Shown in pieces: positions 1,900-63,161 of a stretch of 64,000 bases of DNA; position 1 is the stretch's first letter; every line of letters starts with the position of its first letter. The DNA lies in assembly GCA_022432975.1 (NCBI GenBank), contig CM039516.1, positions 29,590,051-29,654,050 of the forward strand, read 5' to 3'. The stretch is from Begonia masoniana (taxonomy: Eukaryota > Streptophyta > Magnoliopsida > Cucurbitales > Begoniaceae). The position numbers were made by a program, and so were the translations under genes. The notes under the pieces are model-generated. The model had not been told where the DNA came from. It saw only the letters and a list, made by a program, of their open reading frames with translations, and searched no databases.

Positions 1900-2116
1900 G
1901 TAAGCCCTCCTTGTTTTCTTGCGATTTTAGTAGTTAGATAGCTGAGGGAGTACAATGTGAGAAGTTTCGAGGAATGCTGTGATTTAGAGTAGGTTCGGGC
2001 TGTGTGACTAATGAGAATACCCGAGTTGTGGGGTTTCAAATTTGGTTTCCTCAAACTCCTGTAATGATCCTGTGAAGTTTAATAAAAGTTTGATATATGT
2101 ACTATTATGATTTTAG
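1900..2116 (+). other. Predicted LTR leader intron 1
   Basis: Donor CTAG|GTAAG and acceptor GATTTTAG|G. This 217-nt segment is exactly what is missing from the LTRs of the duplicated Tekay element, where the same preceding bases (CCTTCAACCTAG) join directly to the homologue of 2117-2167. Splicing is inferred from sequence only. Confidence 0.6.
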
Positions 2117-12895: not shown

Positions 12896-14799
12896 TGTAA
12901 CGCCCCGAGTTATCTGAACCCGGTTCGTTACCACTAACGCAAACATCACCAAGAACTCTCGGAGCAATTTACAATTTCACTCGAGGATCAAGATTTGATG
13001 CTTATTAAAACCTAAAAAATGTTTAAAACTTGCAGCAGAAAATCATTTAGACAAGATGTGAATTAATAAAAACTGTAAAATAATGTTTGAAAGAATCAGT
13101 TGAAGTGTTAAGGAATAATTAGTTGAAGGAAAGTAAAAGTTTAAATCGTTAAATACCGATGGGGGTGACAGAGGTCAAACGCCCCTGCCGACGACTAGTC
13201 AACGAATAGGCCATATATAATAGCAGGCTTCTGCCGATGACGTCACGACTCAAACACAGCTGCCGACGACTAGTCAACGGAATAGGCCATATATAAATAA
13301 CAGGCTTCTGCCGATGACGTCAGCAGGATAAACTTAATTATCCAGCTTCTCCTGCCGGTGACGTCAGCCAGATAAACCCATTATCTAACTTCTGCCGATT
13401 GCTAAACGGCTAAGCAGAATGTCTACTTATGCCGATGACGTCAGCAGGATAACTTAATTATCCAGCTTCTGCCGATACGTGCTTATCACGTGACTTTTAA
13501 AACGTATGCCGATAGAAGGCAAGTTTACTGCTTATCAACTACCGGTAGGACAGCAAAACAACTACTCTTCTCCTGCCGATAGACTTTACCAAACAACATC
13601 AAATAGACGTATTACTTCAACTTCATATCGATGGACTGAACATTTGACAGTAAACTTGACTAACAATTGGACTCAACATTTTACCAAAACTCATTCTAAA
13701 ACACCCTCAATTCATTGTATTACTCAAATTCCGTAAAATCAGCATTCTAGAAATTCAACAGGACACTAACATCAGAAATTCTAAAATGTATTCAAAAGGT
13801 TGCAATCTCTACTGTTATAAAAATTCAACATACTCAGACTAAATCATTGTCAATTAATTTCTCATATCTGCAGACATCAGTTAATCCGCCTCAACAGTTT
13901 GCCGAATCAGAACATGAGAGTACTCCTCCAACCACATCTATTCATTTGCACGATCAAGGAAATCACCTGCTATATTCTCAACACCTACATCACAAAACTC
14001 ATCTATTAGCCTAATGCTAAGTAAGCAGAGCAAGAAATGATGGGAAGTACAGAGATATGCAAATCCTAAATATGCAATTTCTACATTCCTCTTCCTCAGT
14101 TATATTGCATTCATTCAACCGGTCTGATGATCCCTGATACAATGGGAGGTGGATCAGCTTTCCAGGGTATGAATCCACATATATGTCACTTAAGGGGTGG
14201 ATTAGTTCCCTTAACAGATGATTGATCCCTGATACAATGGGAGGTGGATCGGTTTTCCCAAGGTATGAATCCAGTTATGTTCGATTAAGGGGCGGATTAA
14301 TTCCCTTAAAAATGTATTGTCTCAATCTGTTCACACTCACCATGCTACTTCATGTAAATTCATTTTCGTTTTCTTTCCAAAATATGATGCATGGCAATTG
14401 AAATGAAACATACTTCATGCATACAAGAAAATCCTAGTGTTTTGTGATGTAGGCCCGGAGGCAAATACAAACTCTACTTACCTGGCCCTCCTGGAATTAC
14501 TTGGTTGCTAGCTACTTCGGTTTAGCTCAAACCTAGGTTAAGGAGAATCGAACAGGGGAATCGCCTGGAGATCCTGCTGCTCGAGCTGAAAAACCGAGAG
14601 GAAATGAGGGAAAGGGTGGCGGCTACCGTGAAATAACTCAAAACCTCTTTCCTTAAATACGTTATCCACTTTTTAAATTTCCAATTACTCATATGCCCTT
14701 GTCTAGTCATCACCAACCCTACATTTAATATTGCCATATAAAATGCACCATTAGCTACAAGAGATAGAGAATTGGTCTATATAAAAACCGGGTATTACA
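12896..14799 (-). mobile_element. 5' LTR of copy A element
   Basis: 1904 bp; differs from the left LTR by a few substitutions and several one-base indels. It carries the same TGACGTCA motifs and stem arms (13984-13998, 14439-14453), and leader intron 1 is absent here too. Confidence 0.92.
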
Positions 14800-19433: not shown

Positions 19434-21316
19434 TGTAACGCCCCGAGTTATCTGAACCCGGTTCGTACCACTAACGCAAACACTCACAAGAACTCTCGGA
19501 GCAATTTACAATTTCACTCGAGGATCAAGATTTGATGCTTATTAAAACCTAAAAATGTTTAAAACTTGCAGCGGAAAATCATTTAGACAAGATGTGAATT
19601 AATAAAAACTGTAAAATAATGTTTGAAAGAATCAGTTGAAGTGTTAAGGAATAATTAGTTGAAGGAAGTAAAAGTTTAAATCGTTAATACCGATGGGTGA
19701 CAGAGGTCAAACGCCCCTGCCGACGACTAGTCAACGGAATAGGCATATATAAATAACAGGCTTCTGCCGATGACGTCACGACTCAAACACAGCTGCCGAC
19801 GACTAGTCAACGGAATAGGCCATATATAAATAACAGGCTTCTGCCGATGACGTCAGCAGGATAACTTAAATTATCCAGCTTCTCCTGCCGGTGACGTCAG
19901 CCAGATAAACCATTATCTAACTTCTGCCGATTGCTAACGGCTAAGCAGAATGTCCTACTTATGCCGATGACGTCAGCAGGATAACTTAATTATCCAGCTT
20001 CTGACGATACGTGCTTATCACGGTGACTTTTAAAACGTATGCCGATAGAAGGCAAGTTTACTGCTTATCAATACCGGTAGGACAGCAAAACACTACTCTT
20101 CTCCTGCCGATAGGACTTTACCAAAACACATCAAATAGCGTATTACTCAACTTCATATCGATGGACTGAACAATTTGACAGTAAACTGACTAACAATTGG
20201 ACTCAACATTTTACCAAAACTCATTCTAAACACCTCAATCATGTATTACTCAAATTCCGTAAAATCAGCATTCTAGAAATTACAACAGGACCCTAACATC
20301 AGAAATTCTAAAATGTATTCAAAAGGTTGCAATCTCTACTGTTATAAAATTCAACCTACTCAGACTAAATCATTGTCAATTAATTTCTCATATCTGCAGA
20401 CATCAGTTAATCCGCCTCAACGTTTGCCGAATCAGAACATGAGAGTACTCCTCCAACCACATCTATTCATTTGCACGATCAAGGAAATCACCTGCTATAT
20501 TCTCAACACCTACATCACAAAACTCATCTATTAGCCTAATGCTAAGTAAGCAGAGCAAGAAATGATGGAAGTACAGAGATATGCAAATCCTAAATATGCA
20601 ATTTCTACATTCTCTTCCTCAGTTATATTGCATTCATTCAACCGTCTGATGATCCCTGATACAATGGGAGGTGGATCAGCTTTCCCAGGTATGAATCCAC
20701 ATATATGTCACTTAAGGGGTGGATTAGTTCCCTTAACAGATGATTGATCCCTGATACAATGGGAGGTGGATCGGTTTTCCAAGGTATGAATCCAGTTATG
20801 TTCGATTAAGGGGCGGATTAATTCCCTTAAAAATGTATGTCTCAATCTGTTCACAATCACCATGCTACTTCATGTAATTCATTTCGTTTTCTTTCCAAAA
20901 TATGATGCATGGCAATTGAAATGAAACATACTTTCATGCATACAAGAAATCCTAGTGTTTTGTGATGTAGGCCCGAGGCAAATACAAACTCTACTTACCT
21001 GGCCCTCCTGGAATTACTGGTTGCTAGCTACTTCGGTTTAGCTCAAACCTAGGTTGAAGGAGAATCGAACAGGGGAATCGCCTGGAGAATCCTGCTGCTC
21101 GAGCTGAAAAAACCGAGAGGAAATGAGGAAAGGGGTGGCGGCTACCGTGAAATAACTCAAAACCTCTTTCCTTAAATACGTTATCCACTTTTTAAATTTC
21201 CAATTACTCATATGCCCTTGTCTAGTCATCCACCAACCCTACATTAATATTGCCATATAAAATGCACATTAGCTACAAGAGATAGAGAATTGGTCTATAT
21301 AAAACCGGGTATTACA
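19434..21316 (-). mobile_element. 3' LTR of copy B element
   Basis: 1883 bp, about 20 bp shorter than the copy A counterpart because of scattered one-base deletions. Stem arms 20509-20523 and 20957-20971 are intact. Confidence 0.9.
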
Positions 21317-25977: not shown

Positions 25978-27886
25978 TGTAACGCCCCGAGTTATCTGAA
26001 ACCCGGTTCGTTACCACTAACGCAAACATCACCAAGAACTCTCGGAGCAATTTACAATTTCACTCGAGGATCAAGATTTGATGCTTATTAAAACCTAAAA
26101 AATGTTTAAAACTTGCAGCAGAAAATCATTTAGACAAGATGTGAATTAATAAAAACTGTAAAATAATGTTTGAAAGAATCAGTTGAAGTGTTAAGGAATA
26201 ATTAGTTGAAGGAAGTAAAAGTTTAAATCGTTAAATACCGATGGGGTGACAGAGGTCAAACGCCCCTGCCGACGACTAGTCAACGGAATAGGCCATATAT
26301 AAATAGCAGGCTTCTGCCGATGACGTCACGACTCAAACACAGCTGCCGACGACTAGTCAACGGAATAGGCCATATATAAATAACAGGCTTCTGCCGATGA
26401 CGTCAGCAGGATAACTTAATTATCCAGCTTCTCCTGCCGGTGACGTCAGCCAGATAAACCCATTATCTAACTTCTGCCGATTGCTAAACGGCTAAGCAGA
26501 ATGTCCTACTTATGCCGATGACGTCAGCAGGATAACTTAATTATCCAGCTTCTGCCGATACGTGCTTATCACGTGACTTTTAAAACGTATGCCGATAGAA
26601 GGCAAGTTTACTGCTTATCAACTACCGGTAGGACAGCAAAACAACTACTCTTCTCCTGCCGATAGACTTTACCAAACAACATCAAATAGACGTATTACTC
26701 AACTTCATATCGATGGACTGAACAATTTGACAGTAAACTTGACTAACAATTGGACTCAACATTTTACCAAAACTCATTCTAAAACACCTCAATTCATTGT
26801 ATTACTCAAATTCCGTAAAATCAGCATTCTAGAAATTCAACAGGACACTAACATCAGAAATTCTAAAATGTATTCAAAAGGTTGCAATCTCTACTGTTAT
26901 AAAAATTCAACATACTCAGACTAAATCATTGTCAATTAATTTCTCATATCTGCAGACATCAGTTAATCCGCCTCAACAGTTTGCCGAATCAGAACATGAG
27001 AGTACTCCTCCAACCACATCTATCATTTGCACGATCAAGGAAATCACCTGCTATATTCTCAACACCTACATCACAAAACTCATCTATTAGCCTAATGCTA
27101 AGTAAGCAGAGCAAGAAATGATGGAAGTACAGAGATATGCAAATCCTAAATATGCAATTTCTACATTCCTCTTCCTCAGTTATATTGCATTCATTCAACC
27201 GGTCTGATGATCCCTGATACAATGGGAGGTGGATCAGCTTTCCCAGGGTATGAATCCACATATATGTCACTTAAGGGGTGGATTAGTTCCCTTAACAGAT
27301 GATTGATCCCTGATACAATGGGAGGTGGATCGGTTTTTCCCAAGGTATGAATCCAGTTATGTTCGATTAAGGGGCGGATTAATTCCCTTAAAAATGTATT
27401 GTCTCAATCTGTTCACAACTCACCATGCTACTTCATGTAAATTCATTTTCGTTTTCTTTCCAAAATATGATGCATGGCAATTGAAATGAAACATACTTTC
27501 ATGCATACAAGAAAATCCTAGTGTTTTGTGATGTAGGCCCGGAGGCAAATACAAACTCTACTTACCTGGCCCTCCTGGAATTACTTGGTTGCTAGCTACT
27601 TCGGTTTAGCTCAAACCTAGGTTGAAGGAGAATCGAACAGGGGAATCGCCTGGAGAATCCTGCTGCTCGAGCTGAAAAACCGAGAGGAAATGAGGGAAAG
27701 GGTGGCGGCTACCGTGAAATAACTCAAAACCTCTTTCCTTAAATACGTTATCCACTTTTTAAATTTCCAATTACTCATATGCCCTTGTCTAGTCATCCAC
27801 CAACCCTACATTTAATATTGCCATATAAAATGCACCATTAGCTACAAGAGATAGAGAATTGGTCTATATAAAAACCGGGTATTACA
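25978..27886 (-). mobile_element. 5' LTR of copy B element
   Basis: 1909 bp, clean. Stem arms 27065-27079 and 27523-27537. Exon 1 and exon 2 equivalents are joined without intron 1 near 27619. Confidence 0.92.
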
Positions 27887-32801: not shown

Positions 32802-34285
32802 TGTTAGTGATTTTACACACTTACACGCAAGTGCACGTGTCGCTAACGAAGTAATAGAGTAAGTAGAGTATCGATCCCACGAGGATAACGTTAGCTATAT
32901 TTAAATTGCTATAAAAATATGATAAAAATACTAAATTGATAATTGAAATTAATTAAAAATAAATTTGAGTAACTATGCAATAAAAGAAAACAAATTAAAC
33001 GAGATAAATTCGATGGATAAAAGCCTTGGCTAGGATCGATTTCTTTGTTACGATGATTTTACTACTGATGCTGTGGTAATGCTCTACAGCATTATCTAAA
33101 AAACAGCAAGAATAAAAATTATTTTCTAGGATTCTTTCGAATTGCCTAGGTAAATTCAAATCAGAATTTCTTTCTACCTTGAAAGAATGTGACTAAAATT
33201 GAATTTTCGATATGTGCTATTCTTATTGCCAATCAAATTAATGTTAACCACGTTGTAACAAAATAATTCAATTAATTATTCATGCATCTAAAATTTATAT
33301 CTATCTATCGATACAATATAAATATAAATAGTCAACCTATCTATCGATATGATCTGACTTAAGCAAGAAACATCACAAATAATTGTTCAATAGATAATCG
33401 CAGAAACAAAACCAAGATTGTAGCAAAATATCGCAACAAATACTATCGTCCTAACCAAGATTAAAAGTTTAGCCTAAATTCATAAAATTAAAACTGAATA
33501 AATATGAAAATTGCAAGAACATAAAAAGAATAGAGAAGAAGAAAAATCCAGCAAAGCGTCGGTCTTCGTTTTTTGTTCCAGAGTTTCTCTGCCGCTTGCC
33601 AAAATCCTCCTCTCGCTGGAATTGCCGAATATCTCTTTTTGTTTTCAATATTCCTTATTTTAATGCATCGTATCTCTTTGTTTTGATAAGTATCCCTTCT
33701 TTTCTGCATGCCATCCTTTCTTTCTCTCTCCAATGATTTGTTTTATTTAATTACTCCATCTATTTGTGCTGCCCTTTTCCAGAATGGCCATTATCTCTCC
33801 TTGGCTTTGATCCACGTGTTTCATCCATCCTTCCAAATCTTCTTTTTCCAATTTGTTTTTCCCTCCTTTTTGCCCTTTTCTACAAGCCATGTGTCATCTC
33901 CTCTTTTCCATAAAATCTTCCTTCTATTGGATTTTCCTTGATCGTAATAATTTCTTCTCTCTCTTCTTGTATTCTGCATCAATTTATAATCAAAATAAAT
34001 CCTCAAATTTTGGCAATCATAATTTTCATTTAACAAATCCAACTTTTAAACTTGATTTTTCCCGCTATAGTCCTTGCATTCAAATATGAAAATATAAAAT
34101 TCAAATTAAAGAGAAAAATCATGCTTTTCATAGAAAATTAGCATTAAATATGTAGCACCCGGTTCTATTGAACCGAATTTAACTAACCATTTATAATGTG
34201 AGGATTTGGGAGAAAATGATGATTAGGTTAATAAATAACTATGCAAGGGCAAAAGAGTAATTAGCATTTTGAAAAGTGGAAAATG

Positions 34286-34293
34286 TATTTAAG
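34286..34293 (+). promoter_or_regulatory. TATA-like box of the LTR promoter
   Basis: TATTTAAG. The same word is kept in family 1 (about 1779-1786), in the 3' LTR (41199-41206) and, reversed, in the duplicated element. A C/T-rich leader follows within 40-80 bp. Inferred core promoter. Confidence 0.55.
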
Positions 34294-34410
34294 GAAGGGT
34301 TTAATGAGGTTTAGCCGCCACTATTCCCTCATTTCTCCTTTCTCGGTATTCAGCTCAGGCTCAGCAGAACTCCAGGCGATTCTCCTTACCGATCCTCATT
34401 CCTCAACTAG

Positions 34411-34630
34411 GTAAGTTTTCCTTTCGTTCACTTGAGATTTCAGTGGTTAGATAGCAGAGGGAGCGCAATGTGTGTGTGTTATGTCGATATTGTGAATGAA
34501 TGGAGTTCGGGATTTAGTACTGAGCTGAGAGTGTATGATGACCAGAACTTCCAAACTAGCTCCTTAGGTTTCTGAGTGATGTAGGATACAGTTAGTGGTA
34601 ATCTAATCGGTATTCTGCTTATGAAACTAG
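34411..34630 (+). other. Predicted LTR leader intron 1
   Basis: Donor AACTAG|GTAAGTT, acceptor GAAACTAG|G, 220 nt. It aligns in position with 1900-2116. Confidence 0.55.
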
Positions 34631-34681
34631 GTGGGCAAGGCTTCCGGAGTAGTTGAAAACGAATGATTTCCAGGAGATCAG

Positions 34682-35193
34682 GTAAGTAATGTTTGCTTGT
34701 GCCTTCGGGCCTACATCACAAAACGTTAGGTTTGTATTTACTTGGATGTGTTTGTATGCCATGCATCATGTTTTCAAAATGTATACGAAAATGAATTTGA
34801 ATACATATTGGTATGGAGAGGATTGAATGTGATGAAACAGCAAAGTGAATCAGACTTACTGTTAAGGGAATTAATCCGCCCCTTAATGAGACAGTGGATA
34901 TAAATATACTTGGAAGAGCTGATCCAACTTCCAATTTCACAGGGGGATCTGAACATGTGAATCAGATTTACTGTTAAGGGAATTAATCCGCCCCTTAATG
35001 CGTCAGTGGATAAATACTTTGGGAGAGTTGATCCAACTCCCAATTTCACAGGGGGATCTGAATCAGAAACGATGAATGAGCAACTGAGATGAGAAAGTAG
35101 AAACTGCATGATTAGGAGTTTATGTTTCAGTAATTCATTTCATTTTGCATTACTTACTTAGCATTAGGCTAATAGATGAGTTTTGTGATGTAG
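34682..35193 (+). other. Predicted LTR leader intron 2 with bridging stem
   Basis: Donor ATCAG|GTAAGT, acceptor TGATGTAG|GTGA, 512 nt. The arms CCTACATCACAAAAC (34710-34724) and GTTTTGTGATGTAGG (35180-35194) are perfect complements. Two tandem hairpin units (34862-34886 and 34974-34998) sit in the loop. Confidence 0.55.
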
Positions 35194-35566
35194 GTGAAGA
35201 AGTGACAGTAGGTGTGTTTACTGAGTTCACTGAGGACTAGTCGGGTTGGAGGAGTGCACCTATTCAATGTTCTGGCAGCTGATGGGGCGGTTTAACTGAT
35301 GTCTGTCAGTGAGGAGGACTAGTAGTTAAAGATTCAGTCCGAGTATGTTGAGTTTTCATGACAGAATTGATTTCAAAGTTTTGAACATGTTTTGAGTTTT
35401 CCTTCCTGATAACCGTATCTTGTTGGGTCTAGATGTTAGTACTTGCTAAATTTTGAGTAATGCAATGGTTGAATCGTTTTTGAATGATTTCAGTAGAGTA
35501 AGTAAATCCTTTTCTGTAGTTGGAGTAGTGTTTTATAACGAGGAGTTGATGAAATGTTGTTTTGTT

Positions 35567-36115
35567 CTCTATCGGTAGATGATGACTATCGGTAGATGTT
35601 GAGTCATGGTTAAGTTGTCTATCGGAAGATGTTGTGAAGGTTTTTGTCGTCTAGCGATCGGCAGATGTTGGATGAAGGGATCATCCGGCTGACGTCATCG
35701 GTAGATGTCGCGCGTTTGTCTATCGGAAGATGGAAATCTGCCGACAGATGAATTTGTGTTGACTTCATCGGCAGATGAAGTTGTGTATGAAGTTATGTTG
35801 ACTTCATCGGTAGATGAAGTTATGTTGACTTCATCGGCAGATGAATTTGTGTTGACTTCATCGGCAGATGAAGTTGTGTATGAAGTTATGTTGACTTCAT
35901 CGGCAGATGAAGTTATGTTGACTTCATCGGCAGATGAAGTTGTGTATGAAGTTATGTTGACTTCATCGGCAGATTAAGTTATGTTGACTTCATTGGCAGA
36001 TGATGCTGCGTTGACGTCATCGGCAGATGGTAATGCGTTGTTGGTGCACGTCATCGGTAGAAGCCTTTTTGTTTTCATTTTTGCTCCTTCCGTTGGCTTT
36101 GCTCATCGGCAGATA
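35567..36115 (+). repeat. LTR-internal CATCGGCAGATG repeat array (5' LTR)
   Basis: Degenerate copies at the edges and regular 27/39-bp units between about 35745 and 36010. Compared with the 3' LTR array (42480-43028) the unit number agrees, but one unit differs in type (GTTATG against TTTGTG), pointing to conversion within the array. Confidence 0.88.
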
Positions 36116-36395
36116 CGTTGGATTTCCGCGATTTCTCCTAGTATTCCACAGTTTTAAACTTTAATTCCAAACTACCGATTGCCTCTTAACATTTCGAACC
36201 ATGATTTATAGTTTTGTTTTACTACATTGCTGTTTAGAATTATTTCCGCTGCAAGTTTTAAATATTTTAAATTTTTAGAAAAAGTCAAATTTTGACTGTC
36301 GAGCGAAATTTTTTTTATTTAGCATCAAGTCGTCATGGTTCGGTTCAGTGTTATGGGTAGCAAACCGGGTTCTGATGACTCGGGGCGTTACAAGT

Positions 36396-36408
36396 TGGTA
36401 TCAGAGAC
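36396..36408 (+). other. Primer-binding site
   Basis: TGGTATCAGAGAC, three bases after the 5' LTR. Complementary to the initiator-Met tRNA 3' end for its first eleven bases. Confidence 0.9.
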
Positions 36409-36546
36409 ATTCAGTTAAACCGTTCAAAAGATTACTCATCAGTGCCGATCGTTGCATGGGAGTACTCCAACAACTGTACGTGTTTATGTTAGCCTTAGTA
36501 ATTAGATGTTTATAAAATAGTTAACCCTGCGCAGGAATATAGCAAA

Positions 36547-39500
36547 ATGTCCCGACGACCAGGAAGGCCAAGGGTGCAGAGAGAGACACCAACTCCGGGA
36601 AGCGCAGAAGATTCTAGTGTAATCGGACAGTTGACAGATCTAGTGCGACAGCAGGCAGAATTAATGCGCCAACAATCCGAGCAACTAGGAGTACTGCTGA
36701 ACCGAGAGGTGCAAGGAAGTGCCAACTCGGGTTCTAGCAACGAGCATTCCGGGGATAGATTCCGGAGGTTAAGACCTCCCACGTTTGATGGTCAGTCGTC
36801 TGATCCTGTTGTGGCTGAAGGGTGGCTTAGGAAGATAGAGAGCATGTTTAGGTGCGCCAGCATAGGAGAAGGAGATAAGGTCACGTTAGCAACATTTCAC
36901 TTAGCTGGCGAAGCTCAACTCTGGTGGGAAACAGTTGAAACCACCACTGACATTCTGACCATGACTTGGTCACAGTTTAAGGACATCTTCTATGAGAAAT
37001 ATTTTAACAGCACGGTCCAGACCGCAAAGAAGTTGGAATTTCTGAATTTGAAGCAGACAGGGTCGGTGGCAGAGTACAGTAGGCAATTTGAGTCCTTGTC
37101 CAGGTTTGCTGGACACTTTGCTCATAAGGACGAGGATAAGGTGTTCAAATTTGTGCATGGACTGAAGCCGGAGATTTATCGGGGAGTCAAATTCTGTGGC
37201 ATTAAAGGTTTAACGTTCAGCGAAGTTGTGTCCACTGCTCTGGAAGTGGAAGAGGCTGAAAGGAAGTGTGCTGGACCAAAGGAGGCCCCGCAAAGGTTTA
37301 ACCAGCCACACCAGCAAAGGGGAACGAAGAGGCCAAGTGAGGGCCAAAATAGCCAAGGATCAGGGGGAAAGGTGCAGAATGTCAGGAAATTTCCCCAGTG
37401 TCCAAAGTGCCTGAAGAACCACCCGGGAGAATGTAGACTTGGCTTGGGAAAGTGCTTCAACTGTGAGGAGGTTGGACATACGTTCAAAGAGTGTTCGAAG
37501 CCTAGAGTCACCAGATGCTATAATTGTAACAAAGTCGGCCACATTAGCAGAGACTGTCCAGTTCCTAAGAGTGGTCCTGCTATGATTAAACCAAGAATAT
37601 TCTCCATGACAAAGTCGGGTGAGGAACAGCCTGCTGTAGTGTCAGGTACTATATTGATCAACTCTGTGCCTGCTTTTACTTTGATAGATTCTGGTGCAAC
37701 GCATTCGTTTATAGCATCTACATTTGCTGTTAAATTAGATGTACAGTTTACCCCTTCCATGCATGTGTTTAATGTTACCTTACCCTCTGGTGAACGCATG
37801 CACTCTAACCGAGTGATGCTTGACAGTGATGTGTTAGTAGGAAGTGTGAGTCTACCTGCTGACCTCATCATTATGGATATAATGGGATTTGATGTAATTC
37901 TGGGAATGGATTGGCTGTTTAAGCATCATGCCACGATTGATTGTAGGACTGGAATAGTTAGTTTCCAACCCCCTGGTAGTTTGAGGCATACCTTTCAAGC
38001 CTCAGAAAAGAGTAAGGAAATGACTGTAATGACTTCGATCAATTGTAGACCCTCCCTATGCAGAGAGTATTTGTGCTTCTTAGCTAGTGTTTTAGACATA
38101 CAACTAGTAGAGAAATCAAGTCCCAAAAATGTCTTAGTCGTCCAAGACTTCCCTGAAGTATTCCTAGATGACCTTCCAGGCTTGCCACCAGATAGGGAAA
38201 TTGAATTTGTTGTGGATGTTTACCCCGGAGCCGAACCTGTGTCTAAAAATCCATATAGACTAGCACCGACAGAACTCAAAGAGTTAAAGAAACAATTGGA
38301 GGATCTGTTGGAGAAAGGGTTCATACGCCCTAGCTTTTCACCATGGGGTGCACCGGTCCTTTTTGTCAAAAAGAAAGATGGATCTATGCGCATGTGCATT
38401 GATTATAGAGAATTGAATAAGTTAACTGTTAAGAATAAATACCCTTTGCCGAGAATTGATGACTTATTTGACCAGCTTAGGGGTGCAAGAGTTTTCTCTA
38501 AGATTGACCTTAGATCCGGTTATTATCAGCTGAAGGTTAAATCTGAGGATATCCCAAAGACTGCCTTTCGCACGAGGTATGGACATTATGAGTTTTTGGT
38601 TATGTCTTTTGGTCTGACAAATGCACCAGCAGCCTTCATGGATCTCATGAATAGGGTGTTTCACGAGTATTTGGACAAGTTTATCATTGTATTCATAGAT
38701 GACATTCTAATCTATTCTAGCACTAAAGACGAGCATGCAAAACATTTGAGTTTAGTGTTAGAAGTACTGAGAAGGCACCAACTTTATGCCAAGTTTTCCA
38801 AGTGTGAATTTTGGTTGGACCAAGTTCACTTTTTAGGACATGTCATCTCTGGAGATGGCATATCTGTGGAACCAGCTAAGGTCCAGGCAGTTAAGGAATG
38901 GCCCCAACCGAGGAATGCTACGGTTGTCAGAAGCTTCCTTGGATTGGCTGGGTATTACAGGAAGTTTATCGAAGGATTCTCAAAGATTGCGACATCCCTT
39001 ACCCGATTAACTAGGAAGAACGTAAAATATGTGTGGACTGAGGATTGTGAGCATAGTTTTCAAACTTTGAAGCAGAAGCTGACCAATGCTCCAATTCTGA
39101 CCCTCCCTGTCGAGGATGGTAAGTTTAGCATTTATTGTGATGCTTCCAAGATCGGTCTAGGTTGTGTGTTAATGCAGGATGGGAAAGTGACAGCTTATGC
39201 CTCTAGACAGTTGAAGGTCCATGAGGAAAATTACCCTACACATGACTTAGAATTAGCTGCAGTTGTATTTGCACTTAAGATTTGGAGGCATTACCTGTAT
39301 GGACAATCTTGTGAGATATTTTCAGATCATAAGAGCCTGAAATACATTTTCACGCAAAAAGATTTGAATATGAGGCAGCGTAGGTGGTTAGAATTTGTCA
39401 AAGATTATGATTTCGAGATTAAATACCACCCTGGTAAGGCCAATGTAGTGGCTGATGCCTTGAGTAGAGTGACTCATTCCGTCTCTGCATTGACTCTAGA

Positions 39501-41028
39501 CATACCAATAGCTTTAGAGACAGAATTCCAAAAGTTTAATCTAGAAGCAGTAACCAATGTATCAGCTATACTTTCAACCATAACTTTAAGGCCTACTATT
39601 CTTGAGAAAATAAAGGAAGCTCAGGCGAACGATGATGAGTGTAACAAGTACAAGTCAAGCATGGATTCTATGGACAAGTCAGATTTTAACTATTCTACCG
39701 ATGGGATCCTTAGGTATAGAAATAGATGGTTTGTTCCTGCCATTAAGAAGCTTCGTGACGAGATTCTTTCTGAAGCACACTCTTCCAGGTTTTCTGTCCA
39801 CCCGGGGAGTACAAAGATGTACAGAGACCTTAAACATCACTACTGGTGGCCTGGTATGAAACGAAGTGTGGCAGAATATGTAGGATCATGTTTGTGTTGT
39901 CAACAGATTAAAGCCGAGCATCAGAGACCCTCAGGAATGTTGCAACCCTTACCAGTTCCCGAATGGAAATGGGAACAAATAGCTATGGATTTTGTTATAG
40001 GATTACCTAGAACAGCAAAGGGACATGATGCAATCTGGGTAATAGTCGATCGTTTAACCAAATCTGCTCACTTTCTGCCGATAAAGATAACATACTCGAT
40101 GGATCAACTGGCAGAGTTGTATGTGCATGAAGTAGTTAGACTGAATGAAGTTCCAAGCACTATAGTTTCAGACCGAGACTCCAGATTTACATCTAAGTTT
40201 TGGAAAAGTCTGCAGAAGGCTATGGGAACGCAACTAAACTTTAGCACAGCTTTCCACCCTCAAACTGATGGACAATCGGAAAGAACCATTCAAACATTAG
40301 AGGATATGCTCCGGGCATGTGTTTTGGATTTTCAAGGTTCTTGGAGCAAATACCTATCCTTAGTAGAATTCTCTTACAACAACAGTTTTCAGGCAACCAT
40401 AGGTATGGCACCATACGAGGCATTGTATGGACGGAAGTGCAGATCACCATTGTATTGGGATGAAGTTGGGGAAGCACAACTGATTGGTCCTGAAATTGTG
40501 CAACAGACAGTAGAGAAGATTGCTCTTATCCGTCAAAGAATCCTGATAGCTCAAAGCCGACAGAAAAGCTATGCAGACAAAAGACGAAGGGAACTGGAAT
40601 TTGATGTTGGTAATGAAGTTTTTCTTAAAGTGTCACCTTTTAAGGGAGTTGTGAGGTTTGGAAAAAGAGGAAAGTTAAACCCCAGATTTATTGGACCATT
40701 CACCATTTTGGAGAGAGTTGGGAGAGCAGCCTACCAGTTACAGCTGCCAGCTTCTATGGATGGAATACACAGTGTGTTCCATGTGTCTATGCTAAAGAAG
40801 TGTGTTAGAGATCCATCACAGATTGTGGAACAGCAGAGTATCGAAGTTCTCCCCACTCTGGCATATGAAGAGAAACCTGTAAGGATCTTGGACTATGCGG
40901 TGAAGGTATTGCGCAACAAAGAGGTTCCATTAGTGAAAGTCCTTTGGCACAACCAGAACATAGAGGAAACAACTTGGGAGCGCCAGCAAGACATGATGGA
41001 CCAACATCCGGAGTTATTCAGGTACTGA
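36547..41028 (+). CDS. Gag-Pol polyprotein of Tekay-type chromovirus, intact (1493 aa)
   Basis: One uninterrupted frame that builds the particle, copies the RNA and integrates the cDNA. Gag capsid about 70-240 ([23 protein letters not shown]); two CCHC knuckles at 303-316 and 324-337; aspartic protease with D381-S-G; RT about 590-770 with FIDD at 716-719; RNase H from about 855 with D865 in IYCDAS; integrase zinc finger from H1078; DD35E residues D1148, D1209 and E1245; GPF at 1383-1385; chromodomain about 1447-1493 ([14 protein letters not shown]). The start is the first ATG after the leader, and its MSRRPGRPR matches MARRPGRPR of the duplicated element. Gag and Pol are fused without frameshift or stop, common in plant chromoviruses. 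No catalytic residue is missing. Confidence 0.97.
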
Positions 41029-41063: not shown

Positions 41064-43303
41064 TGTAGCACCCGGTTCTATTGAACCGAATTTAACTAAC
41101 CATTTATAATGTGAGGATTTGGGAGAAAATGATGATTAGGTTAATAAATAACTATGCAAGGGCAAAAGAGTAATTAGCATTTTGAAAAGTGGAAAATGTA
41201 TTTAAGGAAGGGTTTAATGAGGTTTAGCCGCCACTATTCCCTCATTTCTCCTTTCTCGCTATTCAGCTCAGGCTCAGCAGAACTCCAGGCGATTCTCCTT
41301 ACCGATCCTCATTCCTCAACTAGGTAAGTTTTCCTTTCGTTCACTTGAGATTTCAGTGGTTAGATAGCAGAGGGAGCGCAATGTGTGTGTGTTATGTCGA
41401 TATTGTGAATGAATGGAGTTCGGGATTTAGTACTGAGCTGAGAGTGTATGATGACCAGAACTTCCAAACTAGCTCCTTAGGTTTCTGAGTGATGTAGGAT
41501 ACAGTTAGTGGTAATCTAATCGGTATTCTGCTTATGAAACTAGGTGGGCAAGGCTTCCGGAGTAGTTGAAAACGAATGATTTCCAGGAGATCAGGTAAGT
41601 AATGTTTGCTTGTGCCTTCGGGCCTACATCACAAACGTTAGGTTTGTATTTACTTGGATGTGTTTGTATGCCATGCATCATGTTTTCAAATGTATACGAA
41701 AATGAATTTGAATACATATTGGTATGGAGAGGATTGAATGTGATGAAACAGCAAAGTGAATCAGGCTTACTGTTAAGGGAATTAATCCGCCCCTTAATGA
41801 GACAGTGGATATAAATATACTTTGGAAGAGCTGATCCAACTTCCAATTTCACAGGGGGATCTGAACATGTGAATCAGATTTACTGTTAAGGGAATTAATC
41901 CGCCCCTTAATGCGTCAGTGGATAAATACTTTGGGAGAGTTGATCCAACTCCCAATTTCACAGGGGGGTCTGAATCAGAAACGATGAATGAGCAACTGAG
42001 ATGAGAAAGTAGAAACTGCATGATTAGGAGTTTATGTTTCAGTAATTCATTTCATTTTGCATTACTTACTTAGCATTAGGCTAATAGATGAGTTTTGTGA
42101 TGTAGGTGAAGAAGTGACAGCAGGTGTGTTTACTGAGTTCACTGAGGACTAGTCGGGTTGGAGGAGTGCACCTATTCAATGTTCTGGCAGCTGATGGGGC
42201 GGTTTAACTGATGTCTGTCAGTGAGGAGGACTAGTAGTTAAAGATTCAGTCCGAGTATGTTGAGTTTTCATGACAGAATTGATTTCAAAGTTTTGAACAT
42301 GTTTTGAGTTTTCCTTCCTGATAACCGTATCTTGTTGGGTCTAGATGTTAGTACTTGCTAAATTTTGAGTAATGCAATGGTTGAATCGTTTTTGAATGAT
42401 TTCAGTAGAGTAAGTAAATCCTTTTCTGTAGTTGGAGTAGTGTTTTATAACGAGGAGTTGATGAAATGTTGTTTTGTTCTCTATCGGTAGATGATGACTA
42501 TCGGTAGATGTTGAGTCATGGTTAAGTTGTCTATCGGAAGATGTTGTGAAGGTTTTTGTCGTCTAGCGATCGGCAGATGTTGGATGAAGGGATCATCCGG
42601 CTGACGTCATCGGTAGATGTCGCGCGTTTGTCTATCGGAAGATGGAAATCTGCCGGCAGATGAATTTGTGTTGACTTCATCGGCAGATGAAGTTGTGTAT
42701 GAAGTTATGTTGACTTCATCGGTAGATGAAGTTATGTTGACTTCATCGGCAGATGAATTTGTGTTGACTTCATCGGCAGATGAAGTTGTGTATGAAGTTA
42801 TGTTGACTTCATCGGCAGATGAATTTGTGTTGACTTCATCGGCAGATGAAGTTGTGTATGAAGTTATGTTGACTTCATCGGCAGATGAAGTTATGTTGAC
42901 TTCATCGGCAGATGATGCTGCGTTGACGTCATCGGCAGATGGTAATGCGTTGTTGGTGCACGTCATCGGTAGAAGCCTTTTTGTTTTCATTTTTGCTCCT
43001 TCCGTTGGCTTTGCTCATCGGCAGATACGTTGGATTTCCGCGATTTCTCCTAGTATTCCACAGTTTTAAACTTTAATTCCAAACTACCGATTGCCTCTAA
43101 ACATTTCGAACCATGATTTATAGTTTTGTTTTACTACATTGCTGTTTAGAATTATTTCCGCTGCAAGTTTTAAATATTTTAAATTTTTAGAAAAAGTCAA
43201 ATTTTGACTGTCGAGCGAAATTTTTTTATTTAGCATCAAGTCGTCATGGTTCGGTTCAGTGTTATGGGTAGCAAACCGGGTTCAGATGACTCGGGGCGTT
43301 ACA
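41064..43303 (+). mobile_element. 3' LTR of the full-length element
   Basis: 2240 bp, almost identical to 34151-36392. The 5' stem arm has lost one A here (41633-41646), leaving 14 of 15 positions to pair with 42092-42106. Array at 42480-43028. Confidence 0.95.
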
Positions 43304-43458
43304 AAATATATTAAATTAAATCAACACCCTAATGATGCAGCATTGCATAGCAATTATAATAAATTCATACCAATTTATTATTGCAATCACTCAATTCATA
43401 TAAATTTTCTTATGTAAAATTAGCATAAAATGACTCTAAAATAAGAGTCATCAAAGAC

Positions 43459-45122: not shown

Positions 45123-45736
45123 CTACATCATAAGGTTCAACTATAAGCCTAATGCTTAGTAAGGAATGCAACAATAACATGAATGCATGAATGCATAATT
45201 CAGAGAAATACATGGTCATAAGTCTTTTCTTGTTCATAATCATCATCCATAATCATGAATCATAACCATCATTCGTAATCATTGTTCATAATCATTGTTC
45301 ATATTCATCAATTAAGTTGTGTGGAATGAGAGAGGATTTGTGCCGATAAAGGGGGTTCGACAGTGAGTTTGATCATGGTCCCTACTGCGGGTCGTATTCA
45401 TATGTTCTTCTTTGGACTATGACATACGCCGAACCGCCCCCAACCCTCACTCAACCACGTTGCAGGGATTTTATCATCTTATCTTGTTCATGAGAAAACA
45501 TGCTTTTAAAACATTTTCATGTGCATAAAACATTGATAATGCATGAACATGGGAATTCTTAACTCATTCAGACTACAGAACAGAACATTCATCCAGTATG
45601 AAAACTTACCATTAAACTAAATGTCAACATAAGTACTAGACTGTAGCATAATAACCTCTAATCATCACATCAGTTATTATCTAGCATCCTTATGATGTAG
45701 GGCCCTATTGGCCGGAAATCCTATACATTCACTTAC
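45123..45736 (-). other. Predicted LTR leader intron 2 (solo LTR 43943-46435)
   Basis: Minus-strand donor ACACCAG|GTAAGTG, acceptor TGATGTAG|GTGA, 614 nt. The arms CCTACATCATAAGG (plus 45688-45701 reversed) and CCTTATGATGTAGG (plus 45122-45135 reversed) are perfect complements although the distal bases differ from family 1. Confidence 0.55.
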
Positions 45737-50880: not shown

Positions 50881-51076
50881 AAAATGTGTGCACGTAAGGT
50901 GTTCGATGAATTGCCTAAATGAATGGTTGATTTGGTTTTAGAAACGGTTTGTGTTAAATAGGTTTTAACGACGGATTGTGAATTGCCTTAGGTGAACCAA
51001 GCTAAAGACGGTGCTCGGCATTGCTAAAGACGCCAAGTAAGTGTGTGCGTAGGTTTCCAGCCCTTAAGGCCCTACA
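50881..51076 (+). mobile_element. Old LTR fragment related to the solo LTR inserted in it
   Basis: Has the exon-2-like segment and donor (GACGCCAAGTAAGTG) and the GGCCCTACAT word of the leader-intron stem, all as in 51885-51975. The solo LTR 51077-53231 sits in this fragment, within the CCTACAT arm. Confidence 0.6.
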
Positions 51077-51930
51077 TGTAACACCCGGAAATTTCGTTTT
51101 AAGGATTCCGAGCTTTAAGTTTCGAATATTAAGTATTTAAGCATTATAGAGCAATAATTCGTAGAAATATATAAATTAAGTCCAATTGGCCAACGGGGAG
51201 TTTCGTTAGAGCCCTAAGAATAAATAGAAATATTTGGAGAAATAAGGAAATTTGGAGAAGTTAAACCGATAGACAAATAGTGATTTAAGTTAAGAAGTTA
51301 TGTGAGGGTAAAATAGTAATTTAGAAAATCAAAGATTTTAGTTAAAAAGAGTTTTCTCTCTCTCTTCCCTCACTTTCCTTCTCCCTCACGAATACTCTCC
51401 CTCTCCCTCGCGATTTGCTCCTTCTCCATCGCCAATCCTCAACGCCGGCGACTCCTCTGTTTCCGGCGAGTTTCTCCTCTAGTTTCTTCCCCAAATCGAC
51501 TCTTAGGGTAAGCTCTACGTTTTAGTCAAGATATTGTTCATTTTTGAAGCTATTTTTAGTTAGGGTTTGTGGAGAAACTTAGGGTTTTTGTTAGAAATCG
51601 TTAGGGCTGTTTATTTATTACTCATTAATGATGTATTAGTAATTATTGAGGTTGTTGAAGTAGATTGATGATGTTGGTGGAGGTTTAATGTTAAGTTTAG
51701 GTTGTTGAAAATGATTTGGAAAGTATTAATGGAGTTTTGAAGTTGGTGAGCACCACGTGCTCGATGAAATGCTTAGAAGAAATGAATTAGAATTTTTGGA
51801 AGAGTTTGTCCTAACTTGAGAAGTCGATTGTTTAGATTCGATGTTTGAAAGTCGATATTAAGGATGTGTTGTTAAATGCTCTAGGTAACCCAAGCTCAAA
51901 GGACAGTGCTCGGCATATTGAGGACGCCAG

Positions 51931-52249
51931 GTAAGTGAGCGTTAGGCTTTCCGGCCACTAAGGCCCTACGTCATACAATGTTGATGATGTTTGATGTGAT
52001 GAAAAAGGTGGAAATAGGGGTTGGTAGAAAGGACGGGTAGTTTTAGGTAGTGATTTAAGTAGTGCTCGTTTGATAGGTTTTTCCTTACGTATGTTACACC
52101 TCATGCATCATGTTTTACTAAAGTGCATACGAACTACTTATGAGCATGTTTTATGAAAATGTTTTATAAATGTCATGCATATATGTAAAGTTATGTTTAG
52201 TACGCTCCTTACTAAGCATTAGGCTTAATGGATTTATTGTATGATGTAG
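51931..52249 (+). other. Predicted LTR leader intron 2 (solo LTR 51077-53231)
   Basis: Donor GCCAG|GTAAGTG, acceptor TGATGTAG|GTGA. The arms CCTACGTCATACAAT (51965-51979) and ATTGTATGATGTAGG (52236-52250) pair at all 15 positions with one G-U. Confidence 0.55.
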
Positions 52250-54354: not shown

Positions 54355-56030
54355 GTAAGTTCATAACTGTAGGTTGGCCCTTAAGGCCCTACATCACAGA
54401 GGTACTAGGGTTCCTGTTCTGTCGGGTAGTTTTGGGTAGAAATGTTATAGCTTCTGTTCAGTTTGTGTGCTGTGTTGTCTGTTCAGTTCACGTTCTGAGT
54501 TGTCTGTTTTTCTGTCTCACAATATTCCCTGTTATTTCTGATGACTGCTGATATAGGTTCAGGCACTGAGAATGTCATGCATACACGTTTTACTGAAAAT
54601 CCATGCAAAACCGATTTCTGTACACTGTTTGAAATTAATAAGATAAAATCTGACTGAAATGTACCAGGTTAAGTGCGGGACGGGGGCTGGCCCCAGAACT
54701 GTTACTGATTACTGTTTACTGTACCCCTGAATGTGGCTGATAGTGCACCCTCCCCCTCCCCCACTGTATTGTACCACTGAATGTGCCTGATAGTGACCCT
54801 CCCCCCTCCCCCACTGTATTGTACCCCTGAATGTGGCTGATAGTGCACCCTCCCCCTCCCCCACTGTATTGTACCCCTGAATGTGCCTGATAGTGCACCC
54901 TCCCCCTCCCCCACTGTATTGTACCCCTGAATGTGGCTGATAGTGCACCCTCCCCCTCCCCCACTGTATTGTACCCCTGAATGTGCCTGATAGTGCACCC
55001 TCCCCCTCCCCCACTGTATTGTACCCCTGAATGTGGCTGATAGTGCACCCTCCCCCTCCCCCACTGTATTGTACCCCTGAATGTGGCTGATAGTGCACCC
55101 TCCCCCTCCCCCACTGTATTGTACCCCTGAATGTGCCTGATAGTGCACCCTCCCCCTCCCCCACTGTATTGTACCCCTGAATGTGCCTGATAGTGCACCC
55201 TCCCCCTCCCCCACTGTATTGTACCCCTGAATGTGGCTGATAGTGCACCCTCCCCCTCCCCCACTGTATTGTACCCCTGAATGTGGCTGATAGTGCACCC
55301 TCCCCCTCCCCCACTGTATTGTACCCCTGAATGTGCCTGATAGTGCACCCTCCCCCTCCCCCACTGTATTGTACCCCTGAATGTGCCTGATAGTGCACCC
55401 TCCCCCTCCCCCACTGTATTGTACCCCTGAATGTGGCTGATAGTGCACCCTCCCCCTCCCCCACTGTATTGTACCCCTGAATGTGCCTGATAGTGCACCC
55501 TCCCCCTCCCCCACTGTATTGTACCCCTGAATGTGGCTGATAGTGCACCCTCCCCCTCCCCCACTGTATTGTACCCCTGAATGTGGCTGATAGTGCACCC
55601 TCCCCCTCCCCCACTGTATTGTACCCCTGAATGTGGCTGATAGTGCACCCTCCCCCTCCCCCACTGTATTGTACCCCTGAATGTGCCTGATAGTGCACCC
55701 TCCCCCTCCCCCACTGTATTGTACCCCTGAATGTGCCTGATAGTGCACCCTCCCCCTCCCCCACTGTATTGTACCCCTGAATGTGCCTGATAGTGCACCC
55801 TCCCCCTCCCCCACTGTATTGTACCCCTGAATGTGCCTGATAGTGCACCCTCCCCCTCCCCCACTGTTTGCCAGTTCCCCTATAAGCCCCACATAATTCT
55901 ACTGCTACTGTAACTAAATGCTCTGTACTGTCACTGTATTCTCAAAAACGGCATGCATAGCATTTTGCATCACTGCATACCGATTATGTCTTATTGAGTT
56001 TTAGACTCATAGGTGAACTCTCTGATGTAG
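54355..56030 (+). other. Predicted LTR leader intron 2 (solo LTR 53712-57484), minisatellite inside
   Basis: Donor AACAG|GTAAGT, acceptor TGATGTAG|GTAC, 1676 nt. The arms CCTACATCACAGAG (54388-54401) and CTCTCTGATGTAGG (56018-56031) pair at 13 of 14 positions. Confidence 0.5.
54721..55867. repeat. 50-bp minisatellite, 23 units
   Basis: Units start every 50 bp from 54721 to 55821 (GTACCCCTGAATGTG[G/C]CTGA, then the C-rich TGCACCCTCCCCCTCCCCCAC and TGTATT). All but the second unit are identical except for a G/C site at unit position 16. The minus strand carries three G-runs per unit. Confidence 0.97.
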
Positions 56031-61843: not shown

Positions 61844-63161
61844 TTTATATTTTTTTTTTTTAAAAAAAAAACATAACTTGGCTCAAGACATCAGTCAGCA
61901 ATGAAATACATTACACATCTGCCGGCGAGCAGTGCAAAATGCTTCAGCCGATGAGCAGGAACTTCAACTCCTAAACTGCATCTACTGACAAAGAAATAAA
62001 CCCATATCTGTCGATCGTAATATGACAGAACTCATTATTTATTCACTTGCTTCTGCCGGTCGCTAAACGACAAGCACGGAGTTCGCTTCTGCCGGTAGTG
62101 AAAATCTACATCATCCAGTCATCACGTGCATCTCACTTGACTCATTAGACACCACCCGATCACTAAACGACAAACACATCAATTATATCATCCGGTATTT
62201 GAAACATACTACATCTACCAATCGCTAGATGACAAAACAACATTTATATCATTCGGTGAGTAAACACTCGACATCATCCAATGACGTCAGCCGGAAGACT
62301 CAATCGTTCAACTTCTATCATTAGACATCCGCCGATGACGTCAGTCAGATGATACACTCATCCGACTCCTATCACTCAGCAGTAAAACACGACAATCATC
62401 AAGCAACTTCAACCAACAGAAAAACACCCGACTCTCATAGATTTCAACTTGGTAGGCATAAACTTTAAACGAATAAAATCATAGACTCATTCAGGATACG
62501 TAAAGCGGAAGACTTAATTAAGCAGATCATTGTATAAACTTAAATCATTCCTCGAACTCAGAGATCAAACAGACAAATCCCAACATCCCAAAGTTATAAA
62601 AAAGAATCTCATCCTACATAGACTTCAGTCTTTCATAAACCTTACTGACTTAATGTGAGCATAACTGCGGGTCAATATTGCCTGCCAACCACAAATCTCC
62701 ACCCTGAGCACCTTCCAGCAACCGAGCTTAAACATCCTCATTAGCTTTGAGATCCTCACCTGAAAACTCGTCACCTACATCATGAGGTTTTAACTATAAG
62801 CCTAATGCTTAGTAAGGAATGCAAAATAACATGTATTCATGAATGTACAGTTGAGAGAAAACATGTTCATGATCATTTATCATTCTTGTTTCTGTTCATC
62901 GTTTTCGTCATATGGATTAAGGGAGGATTTGTGCCGTAAAAGGGGGGTTGACAGTGATTTTGATCATATTCTCTTTCGGGTCGTATTCATGGTCCCTCTT
63001 TGGACTGTGGCATGCGTCAACCCGCCCCCAACCCTCACTTAATCATGTTGTATGGGATCGTTTTCATATTCATTCTCATATCTTGTTCATGGAGAAAACA
63101 TGCTCATAAATCATTTTCATATGCTTGAGAAGTAAATCATGATGCATGACATGAATGCTCT

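What the first reader, a model, noticed from the sequence alone, without database searches (positions are those of the whole stretch)
34682..35194. Long-range stem that bridges the ends of an LTR leader intron, with compensating changes between families
In every LTR family examined that keeps this region, a CCTACATCA... word 20-50 nt downstream of a CAG|GTAAGT donor is the reverse complement of a ...TGATGTAGG word that contains the AG acceptor. The inner part is constant; the distal part changes on both sides together: CAAAAC/GTTTTG (2196/2638, 34710/35180, duplicated element), TAAGG/CCTTA (45122/45688), TACAAT/ATTGTA (51965/52236), CAGAG/CTCTC with one mismatch (54388/56018). Loop lengths run from about 250 to 1600 nt. 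Covariation with such variable loops argues for selection on RNA pairing, perhaps to bring distant splice sites together. I know of no description of this in Tekay elements.
Basis: partly seen in the sequence, partly recalled or inferred. Interest (0 to 1): 0.9.

Follow-up and report, generated by a model that had tools for sequence, protein, structure and literature searches.

The report
Covarying RNA stem in retrotransposon intron
The long terminal repeats of several plant retrotransposon families carry what looks like an intron whose two ends can pair through a short RNA helix, and both sides of that helix have changed together over evolution, which suggests that the element uses RNA folding to control its own splicing.

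Summary
In 10 copies from six LTR families, a CAG|GTAAGT donor is followed 27-35 nt later by an arm that pairs with a 3' arm containing the AG acceptor; loops are 263-1621 nt. The outer half covaries (5 of 15 pairs changed on both sides, reached by 3/500 shuffles; covariation score 0/500). In the window's 795-Mb genome the 5' element of non-A families occurs 7,652 times (reversed control 0). Twenty distinct arm pairs, acceptors chosen blind to outer pairing, beat all 10,000 re-pairings.

New: the LTR has two intron-like stretches. The stem-free intron 1 is precisely absent from the A2 family and from one, probably two, genome copies, so RNA spliced there was reverse-transcribed; A2 and L057 kept the stem intron. 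In the A3 family 609 places keep the exon2|intron2 boundary and 0 show the exon2|exon3 junction. The helix covers most of the branch-site-to-AG interval.

I favour masking of the acceptor (intron retention) over bridging.

The parts
34151..36393 (+). 5' LTR of element A3 (3' LTR copy at 41064-43304)
   Evidence: 99.3% identical LTR pair, TGT...ACA ends
34411..34630 (+). intron 1 (no stem), donor CTAG|GTAAGT, acceptor AACTAG
   Evidence: homologous intron precisely absent in A2 LTRs
34631..34681 (+). exon 2, 51 nt, ends CAG
34679..34687 (+). donor 2 CAG|GTAAGT
   Evidence: the 10 occurrences in the window are these donors
34701..34710 (+). small hairpin GCC-UUCG-GGC directly before the 5' arm (GGCC-loop-GGCC in B, C, D)
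   Evidence: read from the sequence
34710..34724 (+). 5' arm CCTACATCACAAAAC
35169..35173 (+). branch-site candidate CTAAT, its A 21 nt from the end of AG
35180..35194 (+). 3' arm GTTTTGTGATGTAGG, contains acceptor AG (intron ends 35193)
35194..35240 (+). start of exon 3; G|GT frame ends at TAG 35238-35240
36396..36406 (+). primer binding site word TGGTATCAGAG
   Evidence: identity as initiator tRNA-Met site recalled
36476..36534 (+). 59-nt intron-like piece ending TTAACCCTGCGCAG, acceptor 12 nt before gag ATG; possible partner of donor 2
   Evidence: same layout in two A2 internal regions
36547..41028 (+). single gag-pol ORF, 1493 aa
2168..2651 (+). stem intron of family A1 (arms 2196-2210 and 2638-2652)
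1900..2116 (+). intron 1 of A1
27066..27565 (-). stem intron of A2a; intron 1 absent, exon 1|exon 2 joined at 27617|27616
20510..20998 (-). stem intron of A2b; intron 1 absent
13985..14481 (-). stem intron of A2c; intron 1 absent
7411..7909 (-). stem intron of A2d; intron 1 absent
41595..42105 (+). stem intron of A3b (3' LTR); 5' arm lost one A
45123..45736 (-). stem intron of family B, CCTACATCATAAGG / CCTTATGATGTAGG
51931..52249 (+). stem intron of family C in solo LTR 51077-53232 (5-bp repeat CTACA)
54355..56030 (+). stem intron of family D in solo LTR 53712-57484 (5-bp repeat ATATG); loop enlarged by a 50-bp tandem array
62774..62787 (-). family E, 3' arm CCTCATGATGTAGG; 5' part cut off by another LTR end near 63161
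50950..51076 (+). fragment F (start approximate): donor word GTAAGT, hairpin and start of a 5' arm, interrupted by the C insertion

Best explanation
The LTR leader of these plant chromovirus-like elements holds two spliceosomal introns. Intron 2 carries a selected long-range helix: an arm just after the donor, next to a small hairpin, pairs with the stretch from about 8 nt after the branch site to the first base of exon 3. When folded, the tract before AG and the AG are double-stranded while the donor lies outside the helix. Splicing of intron 2 is thereby held back, so part of the RNA keeps the intron and can serve as genome. Splicing would destroy both arms, so 'folded and unspliced' and 'spliced' exclude each other. 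The donor may bind U1 or splice to the acceptor just before gag, giving a short-leader mRNA. Shown here: arm complementarity and its covariation; conservation of donor, branch site and acceptor; precise loss of intron 1; no retrotransposed loss of intron 2 found in family A3. Inferred: masking, the genome/mRNA division, and use of the gag acceptor.
For: Covariation. Identical columns among A1, A3a and A2a: donor 9/9, 5' arm 15/15, CATTAGG-to-acceptor stretch 33/33, rest of intron 221/463, exon 2 15/48, exon 3 18/48. The YTNAY word lies 21 nt from AG in 10 of 10 copies, so pairing is not needed to shorten that distance. Natural experiment: the A2 LTRs (4 of 4 copies, one lineage) lack intron 1 exactly and keep intron 2. 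Among 51 genome elements looked at by eye for this, L056 lacks intron 1 and L057 probably does; L057 keeps both arms, L056 keeps donor and 5' arm but no acceptor was found in the stretch held. In the A3 family, 0 places with the exon2|exon3 junction against 609 with exon2|intron2, same length and mismatch limit. Intron 1, whose donors match the consensus less well, has no comparable helix (5-9 bp Watson-Crick in 6 copies). Unspliced A3 leader from an assumed start at 34316: 77 ATGs before gag; exon 1 + exon 2 joined to the gag acceptor: 161 nt with 1. A consensus fold of A1, A3a and A2a introns finds the stem unprompted (none of its pairs vary on both sides there).
Against: Free folding favours the stem (P at least 0.5) in only 11 of 36 genomic introns; in nine low-P cases examined, the stem state lies 2.6-11.5 kcal/mol above the minimum. 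The 10 window copies gave P 0.79-1.00, but the last G of intron 1 is also predicted paired at 0.86 or more in 5 of 6, and with the 5' arm of intron 2 shuffled the AG region stays largely paired elsewhere (0.65-0.72 against 0.81-0.99 native), so 'AG is paired' is not specific. The donor itself is predicted paired in the A2 copies (0.82-0.99) and half paired in B (0.52). Pair 10 is unpaired in 17 of 23 rows and pair 15 in 20 of 23. Zero spliced junctions could also mean that spliced RNA is not packaged rather than not made. The matching count for A3 intron 1 did not complete. No RNA data.
Confidence: 0.45

Rival explanations
1. The helix brings donor and acceptor together and promotes splicing across loops of very variable length.
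For: The helix leaves the donor about 20 nt plus a hairpin away from AG whatever the loop length, 263-1621 nt; branch site and AG are fully conserved among the A families, so the acceptor is probably used at some point.
Against: The helix covers the tract and AG that are read as single strand (general knowledge); intron 2 was kept where intron 1 was lost; 0 against 609 junctions. Introns of 300-600 nt do not usually need such help (general knowledge).
Confidence: 0.22
2. The helix is mainly part of a genome-RNA structure (packaging or dimerisation signal) that sits inside an intron so that only unspliced RNA carries it, like retroviral packaging signals downstream of the major donor (recalled).
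For: Both arms are removed by splicing; the intron of the A families holds further conserved hairpins TTAAGGG...CCCCTTAA in two tandem copies; intron 2 is kept in retrotransposed RNA.
Against: It does not explain why the helix ends exactly at the acceptor; the internal hairpins were compared in the A families only; packaging is not testable here.
Confidence: 0.2
3. The strong donor, kept from splicing by the masked acceptor, recruits U1 to suppress premature polyadenylation in the 5' LTR, as reported for foamy viruses.
For: The nine-base donor is perfect in 10 of 10 copies. PMC3694450 (abstract) reports U1 at the major donor suppressing the 5' LTR poly(A) site, with RNA structure controlling access.
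Against: Poly(A) site and R boundaries are unknown here; the two LTRs have nearly the same sequence; AATAAA occurs in the A3 5' LTR only at 34230, before the inferred start site.
Confidence: 0.08
4. Ribosome shunt structure as in pararetrovirus leaders.
For: Long stem in a leader full of ATGs (77 in A3); a short ATG ORF ends within 30 nt before the 5' arm in 4 of 10 copies: A1 (22 codons), A3a and A3b (8), B (7).
Against: No such ORF in 6 of 10 copies (C, D, four A2), so the uORF-before-stem layout of PMC5902531 (passages) is not kept; it would not explain the perfect donor and acceptor. Odds raised from 0.02.
Confidence: 0.04
5. Covariation without RNA selection: template switching or conversion between the arms copies changes from one arm to the other.
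For: Such events are known for inverted repeats (recalled).
Against: Arms are 263-1621 nt apart; G-U pairs occur at pair 11 (6 of 23 rows) and a mismatch at pair 10 persists (17 of 23), which conversion would erase; no copied flanks are apparent in the rows.
Confidence: 0.03

Closest known systems
Conserved long-range complementary regions in introns (PCCRs; Kalmykova et al. 2021, PMC8052449, abstract seen)
   Same: Distant intronic arms; [quoted passage not shown]
   Different: Those are in human genes; here a mobile element's LTR, with AG and the tract before it inside the arm
Foamy virus LTR donor with U1 and RNA structure (PMC3694450, abstract seen)
   Same: Donor within the transcribed LTR, RNA structure decides its use
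   Different: There the structure is at the donor; here it is at the acceptor, 263-1621 nt away, in a plant element
BARE retrotransposon separate RNA pools (PMC3735527, passages seen)
   Same: Spliced RNA for translation, unspliced RNA for replication
   Different: Copia element, 104-nt intron near the end of gag, no long-range helix in the passages read
Ogre and CRR introns (both named in PMC3735527, Ogre in PMC6317226; passages seen)
   Same: Plant Ty3/gypsy elements with partly spliced introns
   Different: Introns between or within ORFs, not in the LTR
Pararetrovirus leaders, CaMV and RTBV (PMC5902531, passages seen)
   Same: Long leader with stem, uORFs, splice donor and Met-tRNA primer site
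   Different: The uORF-before-stem layout is found in only 4 of 10 copies here

Membership tests
Spliceosomal (U2-type) intron | GT-AG ends with good donor | tested here: met
   CAG|GTAAGT and TAG in 10 of 10 copies
Spliceosomal (U2-type) intron | Branch site at a workable distance | tested here: met
   YTNAY with A 21 nt from AG in 10 of 10 two-armed copies; family E has 22 by inspection
Spliceosomal (U2-type) intron | Removed from RNA | not testable with these tools
   No RNA data; only intron 1 has indirect proof by precise loss
Conserved long-range RNA pairing (PCCR-like) | Compensatory changes above controls | tested here: met
   rows are related, so the shuffle counts are not probabilities
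Conserved long-range RNA pairing (PCCR-like) | Arms double-stranded in cells | not testable with these tools
   no probing data; predicted folding is mixed
Chromovirus (Ty3/gypsy) | gag, protease, RT, RNase H, integrase, chromodomain at the C end | tested here: inconclusive
   gag, protease, RT, RNase H and integrase zinc-binding domain clear, integrase core not listed; Chromo 21.9 bits, E 1.7e-4, below its cut-off 25.1
Tekay clade | Placement in a reference tree of polyprotein domains | not tested
   no reference tree used; B, C, D and E are seen as LTRs only
Pararetrovirus ribosome shunt | Short uORF ending just before the stem | tested here: inconclusive
   present in 4 of 10 copies (A1, A3a, A3b, B), absent in 6 of 10
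Retroviral regulated leader splicing (foamy-like) | Donor within the transcribed LTR | tested here: inconclusive
   Donor lies in the LTR downstream of a TATA-like word and of intron 1, which was spliced at least in A2's ancestor; transcript ends unknown

The most novel reading that the evidence does not exclude
A large group of plant LTR retrotransposons keeps its genome RNA unspliced with no helper protein, by an RNA switch built into the LTR: a rewired but still complementary helix closes the acceptor of the leader intron, so that the same transcript either folds (genome) or is spliced (mRNA) - a cis-acting counterpart of retroviral control of unspliced RNA.
Probability: 0.3. Interest if true: 0.85.

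Novelty: new variant of a known kind. Interest (0 to 1): 0.72.

Why it matters
How plant LTR retrotransposons divide one transcript between translation and replication is open for most families. Here a sequence-visible, covarying helix with thousands of genomic 5' elements, next to an intron that was lost by retrotransposition, makes the question directly testable with long-read RNA data and a simple splicing reporter. It would also be a clear case of a long-range intronic helix under selection in plants.

Tried and rejected
Searches outside the genome gave no usable relative: viral contigs pattern 0 and protein 0 confirmed; genome contigs pattern 0; four contaminant-like loci with gag-pol relatives, none with the exact arm words (one mismatch allowed gave scattered single words only); plasmids 1 partial hit. 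Rfam: 5 matches at E up to 1 in 34000-36600, none at its gathering score.

Coding reading of the acceptor region: a frame reads ...LLSIRLI..DVGEE... across the acceptor in A and B, and ...LLSFRLI..DVGTE... in D, but C and E break it, and constant branch-site spacing explains the same conservation; rejected. Transposon terminal repeats: no target repeats seen at the arms, by inspection only. The A1-like LTR at 61843-58754 lacks the region, but its break is not at a splice site.

Missing controls: the A3 exon1|exon2 junction count did not complete. The genome sample comes from the places listed first (contig C1) and requires the 9-base core on the 5' side and GATGTAGGT on the 3' side, so the core pairs are not evidence there; 15 of 51 elements were dropped for lack of an acceptor by a rule blind to the outer pairing. 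Scripts only waited.

Full report
WHAT WAS CHECKED. The finding names pairs of words, one after a CAG|GTAAGT donor and one containing an AG acceptor, that are reverse complements and whose outer parts differ between LTR families. The pairs are present. Ten copies have donor and both arms: A1, four A2, two A3, B, C and D. Family E has only the 3' arm; its other end is cut by the end of another LTR near 63161 and would lie outside the window. All 10 exact CAGGTAAGT words of the window, both strands, are these donors; 0.40 are expected.

CHANCE AND COVARIATION. Between the 64 bases after the donor word and the last 45 bases of the intron, the longest Watson-Crick helix is 16, 15, 15 and 14 bp in A1, A2a, A3a and B (0 of 1000 shuffles each; 3, 2, 2 and 1 when G-U counts). 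C needs its G-U pair to reach 16 (0/1000). D by itself is not significant because of a mismatch. Of 4000 random placements 9 gave 14 bp or more. A1, A2 and A3 share one arm pair and count once, so the window has four independent pairs at most. On these, 95% of cells pair and 0 of 500 shuffles reach that or the covariation score; 5 of 15 pairs have changes on both sides (3/500); the number of pair types is not special (104/500). Among all 24 ways to assign 3' arms to 5' arms the true one is best, with 21 of 24 outer Watson-Crick pairs; the next best has 16.

THE WINDOW'S OWN GENOME. The assembly has 795 Mb in 308 contigs. The pattern GGTAAGT - gap of 10-30 - GGCCCTACATCA, which leaves out the A families, occurs 7,652 times; read backwards, 0 times. 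I read 50 of these loci (L035-L064, L065-L084), which hold 51 elements. With the acceptor picked by a rule blind to the outer pairing, 36 of 51 have one. They give 20 distinct arm pairs. In the six outer positions 78 of 120 cells pair (69 Watson-Crick), against a mean of 68.5 (49.3) and a maximum of 77 (65) in 10,000 re-pairings. With the window rows added (23 rows), 7 of 16 pairs have changes on both sides and 0 of 500 shuffles reach that number or the covariation score; pair types 37/500. The core nine pairs were required by the patterns and are not evidence here. The rows are related, so these counts are not probabilities. Small-scale examples: L069 has A-U at pair 14 where close relatives have G-C; in the D type pair 11 is A-U (L059), G-U (L061) or G-C (L052, L063), but A-C in L084. 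Against a perfect helix, pair 10 is unpaired in 17 of 23 rows and pair 15 in 20 of 23; the usual form is 9 bp, a mismatch, 4 bp.

ANATOMY. The A3 element is LTR 34151-36393, one gag-pol ORF 36547-41028, LTR 41064-43304. The protein has gag, protease, RT, RNase H, an integrase zinc-binding domain and a weak chromodomain; the named ones among its 120 listed relatives are plant sequences. In the LTR, a TATA-like word is followed by a pyrimidine-rich exon 1, intron 1 (209-377 nt in A1, A3, B, C, D), exon 2 of 45-51 nt, and intron 2 with the stem. A short hairpin, GCC-UUCG-GGC or GGCC-loop-GGCC, stands next to the 5' arm (by inspection). A YTNAY word lies 21 nt from AG in the ten two-armed copies. 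Among A1, A3a and A2a, donor, 5' arm and the stretch CATTAGG-to-acceptor are identical at every column (9/9, 15/15, 33/33), while the rest of the intron is identical at 221 of 463, exon 2 at 15 of 48 and exon 3 at 18 of 48 columns. So what is kept is the splice signals and the helix, not the exons.

A NATURAL SPLICING EXPERIMENT. The four A2 LTRs have exon 1 joined to exon 2 with nothing between, where A1, A3, B, C and D have intron 1. I looked through the 100 bases before donor 2 in the 51 genome elements and followed up two: L056, and probably L057, show the same. In L056, exon-1 sequence that lies 92-202 nt further from exon 2 in relatives (L055, L059, L060) is directly joined to it. Precise loss of an intron is what reverse transcription of a spliced RNA gives, so intron 1 is transcribed and spliced. 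A2 and L057 kept intron 2 with both arms; L056 kept donor and 5' arm, with no acceptor found in the stretch held. A direct count in the A3 family: the exon2|exon3 junction is found 0 times, the exon2|intron2 junction 609 times, each with 25 bases and up to 2 mismatches. The matching count for intron 1 in A3 was asked eight times and never answered. Zero spliced copies shows that RNA with intron 2 removed is not, or very rarely, reverse-transcribed in this family; it does not tell whether such RNA is made.

WHY MASKING IS FAVOURED. The 3' arm covers the stretch from about 8 nt after the branch site to the first exon base, that is the tract before AG and the AG. The distance branch site to AG is already normal (general knowledge), so pairing is not needed to shorten it. 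The intron with the better donor is the one that is kept. The unspliced A3 leader has 77 ATGs before gag, counted from an assumed start at 34316; exon 1 and 2 joined to exon 3 and onward leave 49; exon 1 and 2 joined to an acceptor 12 nt before the gag ATG leave one in 161 nt. That acceptor is conserved in two A2 internal regions. A scheme with masked acceptor 2, donor 2 and a gag-proximal acceptor would give genome RNA and a translatable mRNA from one start. This last part is inference.

RESULTS AGAINST. Unconstrained folding puts the stem at P 0.79-1.00 in the 10 window copies but at 0.5 or more in only 11 of 36 genomic introns, 0.9 or more in 6. In nine low-P introns that I picked, the stem state is 2.6-11.5 kcal/mol above the minimum, with pairing of the acceptor into exon 3 or with the donor region among the competitors. 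The last G of intron 1 is predicted paired at 0.86 or more in 5 of 6 copies, and intron 2 acceptors stay largely paired elsewhere when the 5' arm is shuffled. The donor is predicted paired in the four A2 copies and half paired in B. A consensus fold of A1, A3a and A2a shows the stem but with no two-sided variation in it, and a total covariation term that is not favourable (+1.14). Short ATG ORFs end within 30 nt before the arm in 4 of 10 copies, so a shunt layout is not fully excluded.

WHAT IS KNOWN. Conserved long-range intronic pairings that obstruct splice sites are described in human genes (PMC8052449, abstract). Foamy viruses use U1 at the LTR donor and RNA structure to choose poly(A) sites (PMC3694450, abstract). 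BARE separates translated and replicated RNA (PMC3735527, passages). Sunflower elements show spliced isoforms, and Tekay was absent from the expressed set there (PMC7730604, passages). The listings of my text searches for an LTR intron or such a helix in Tekay, chromoviruses or plant elements showed no description; only openly licensed papers are held and most listed papers were not opened.

VERDICT. A real, selected RNA helix closing the ends of an LTR leader intron: about 0.9. That it holds back splicing of this intron: 0.45. New variant of a known kind (long-range intronic pairing; regulated leader splicing of retroelements).

Noticed in passing
35194-35240 and homologous exon 3 starts: In the G|GT frame a stop follows exactly 15 codons on in 9 of 11 copies (17 in D; A2a broken by an indel) though exon 3 is poorly conserved; the peptides look acidic. 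Exon 1 of A3 has no ATG; exon 2 is open in that frame in A1 and D only, by hand reading of A1, A2, A3, B, D.
   Followed up: partly
36476-36534; minus acceptors near 25835 and 12754: Intron-like 59-nt piece between primer binding site and gag with a good acceptor just before the gag ATG, in A3 and two A2 internal regions.
   Followed up: partly
34860-35060, A-family introns: Two tandem copies of a unit with hairpin TTAAGGG...CCCCTTAA, well conserved among A1, A2, A3.
   Followed up: partly
6300-28100 minus: Four A2 LTRs about 6.5 kb apart alternate with element bodies, a tandem LTR-body array probably made by recombination.
   Followed up: no
54567-55966: 50-bp tandem array inside the stem intron of solo LTR D, enlarging the loop to 1621 nt.
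   Followed up: no
59125-61361 and 35742-36029: 27/39-bp repeats (TTGACTTCATCGGCAGATGAAG type) in the late LTR, strongly expanded in the A1-like LTR at 61843-58754, which lacks the stem region by an imprecise deletion.
   Followed up: partly
about 50950-51076: Fragment F of a further family, cut inside its 5' arm by the C element, which left a CTACA target repeat.
   Followed up: partly
L001-L004; plasmid record NZ_CP087956.1: Gag-pol relatives in records labelled bacterial, probably eukaryotic contamination; L004 is a stretch of a 1.16-Mb contig.
   Followed up: no
genome G000: A3-type leader: 4,559 first-look candidates, of which the 40 scored are 99-100% identical, fitting a recent burst.
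   Followed up: no
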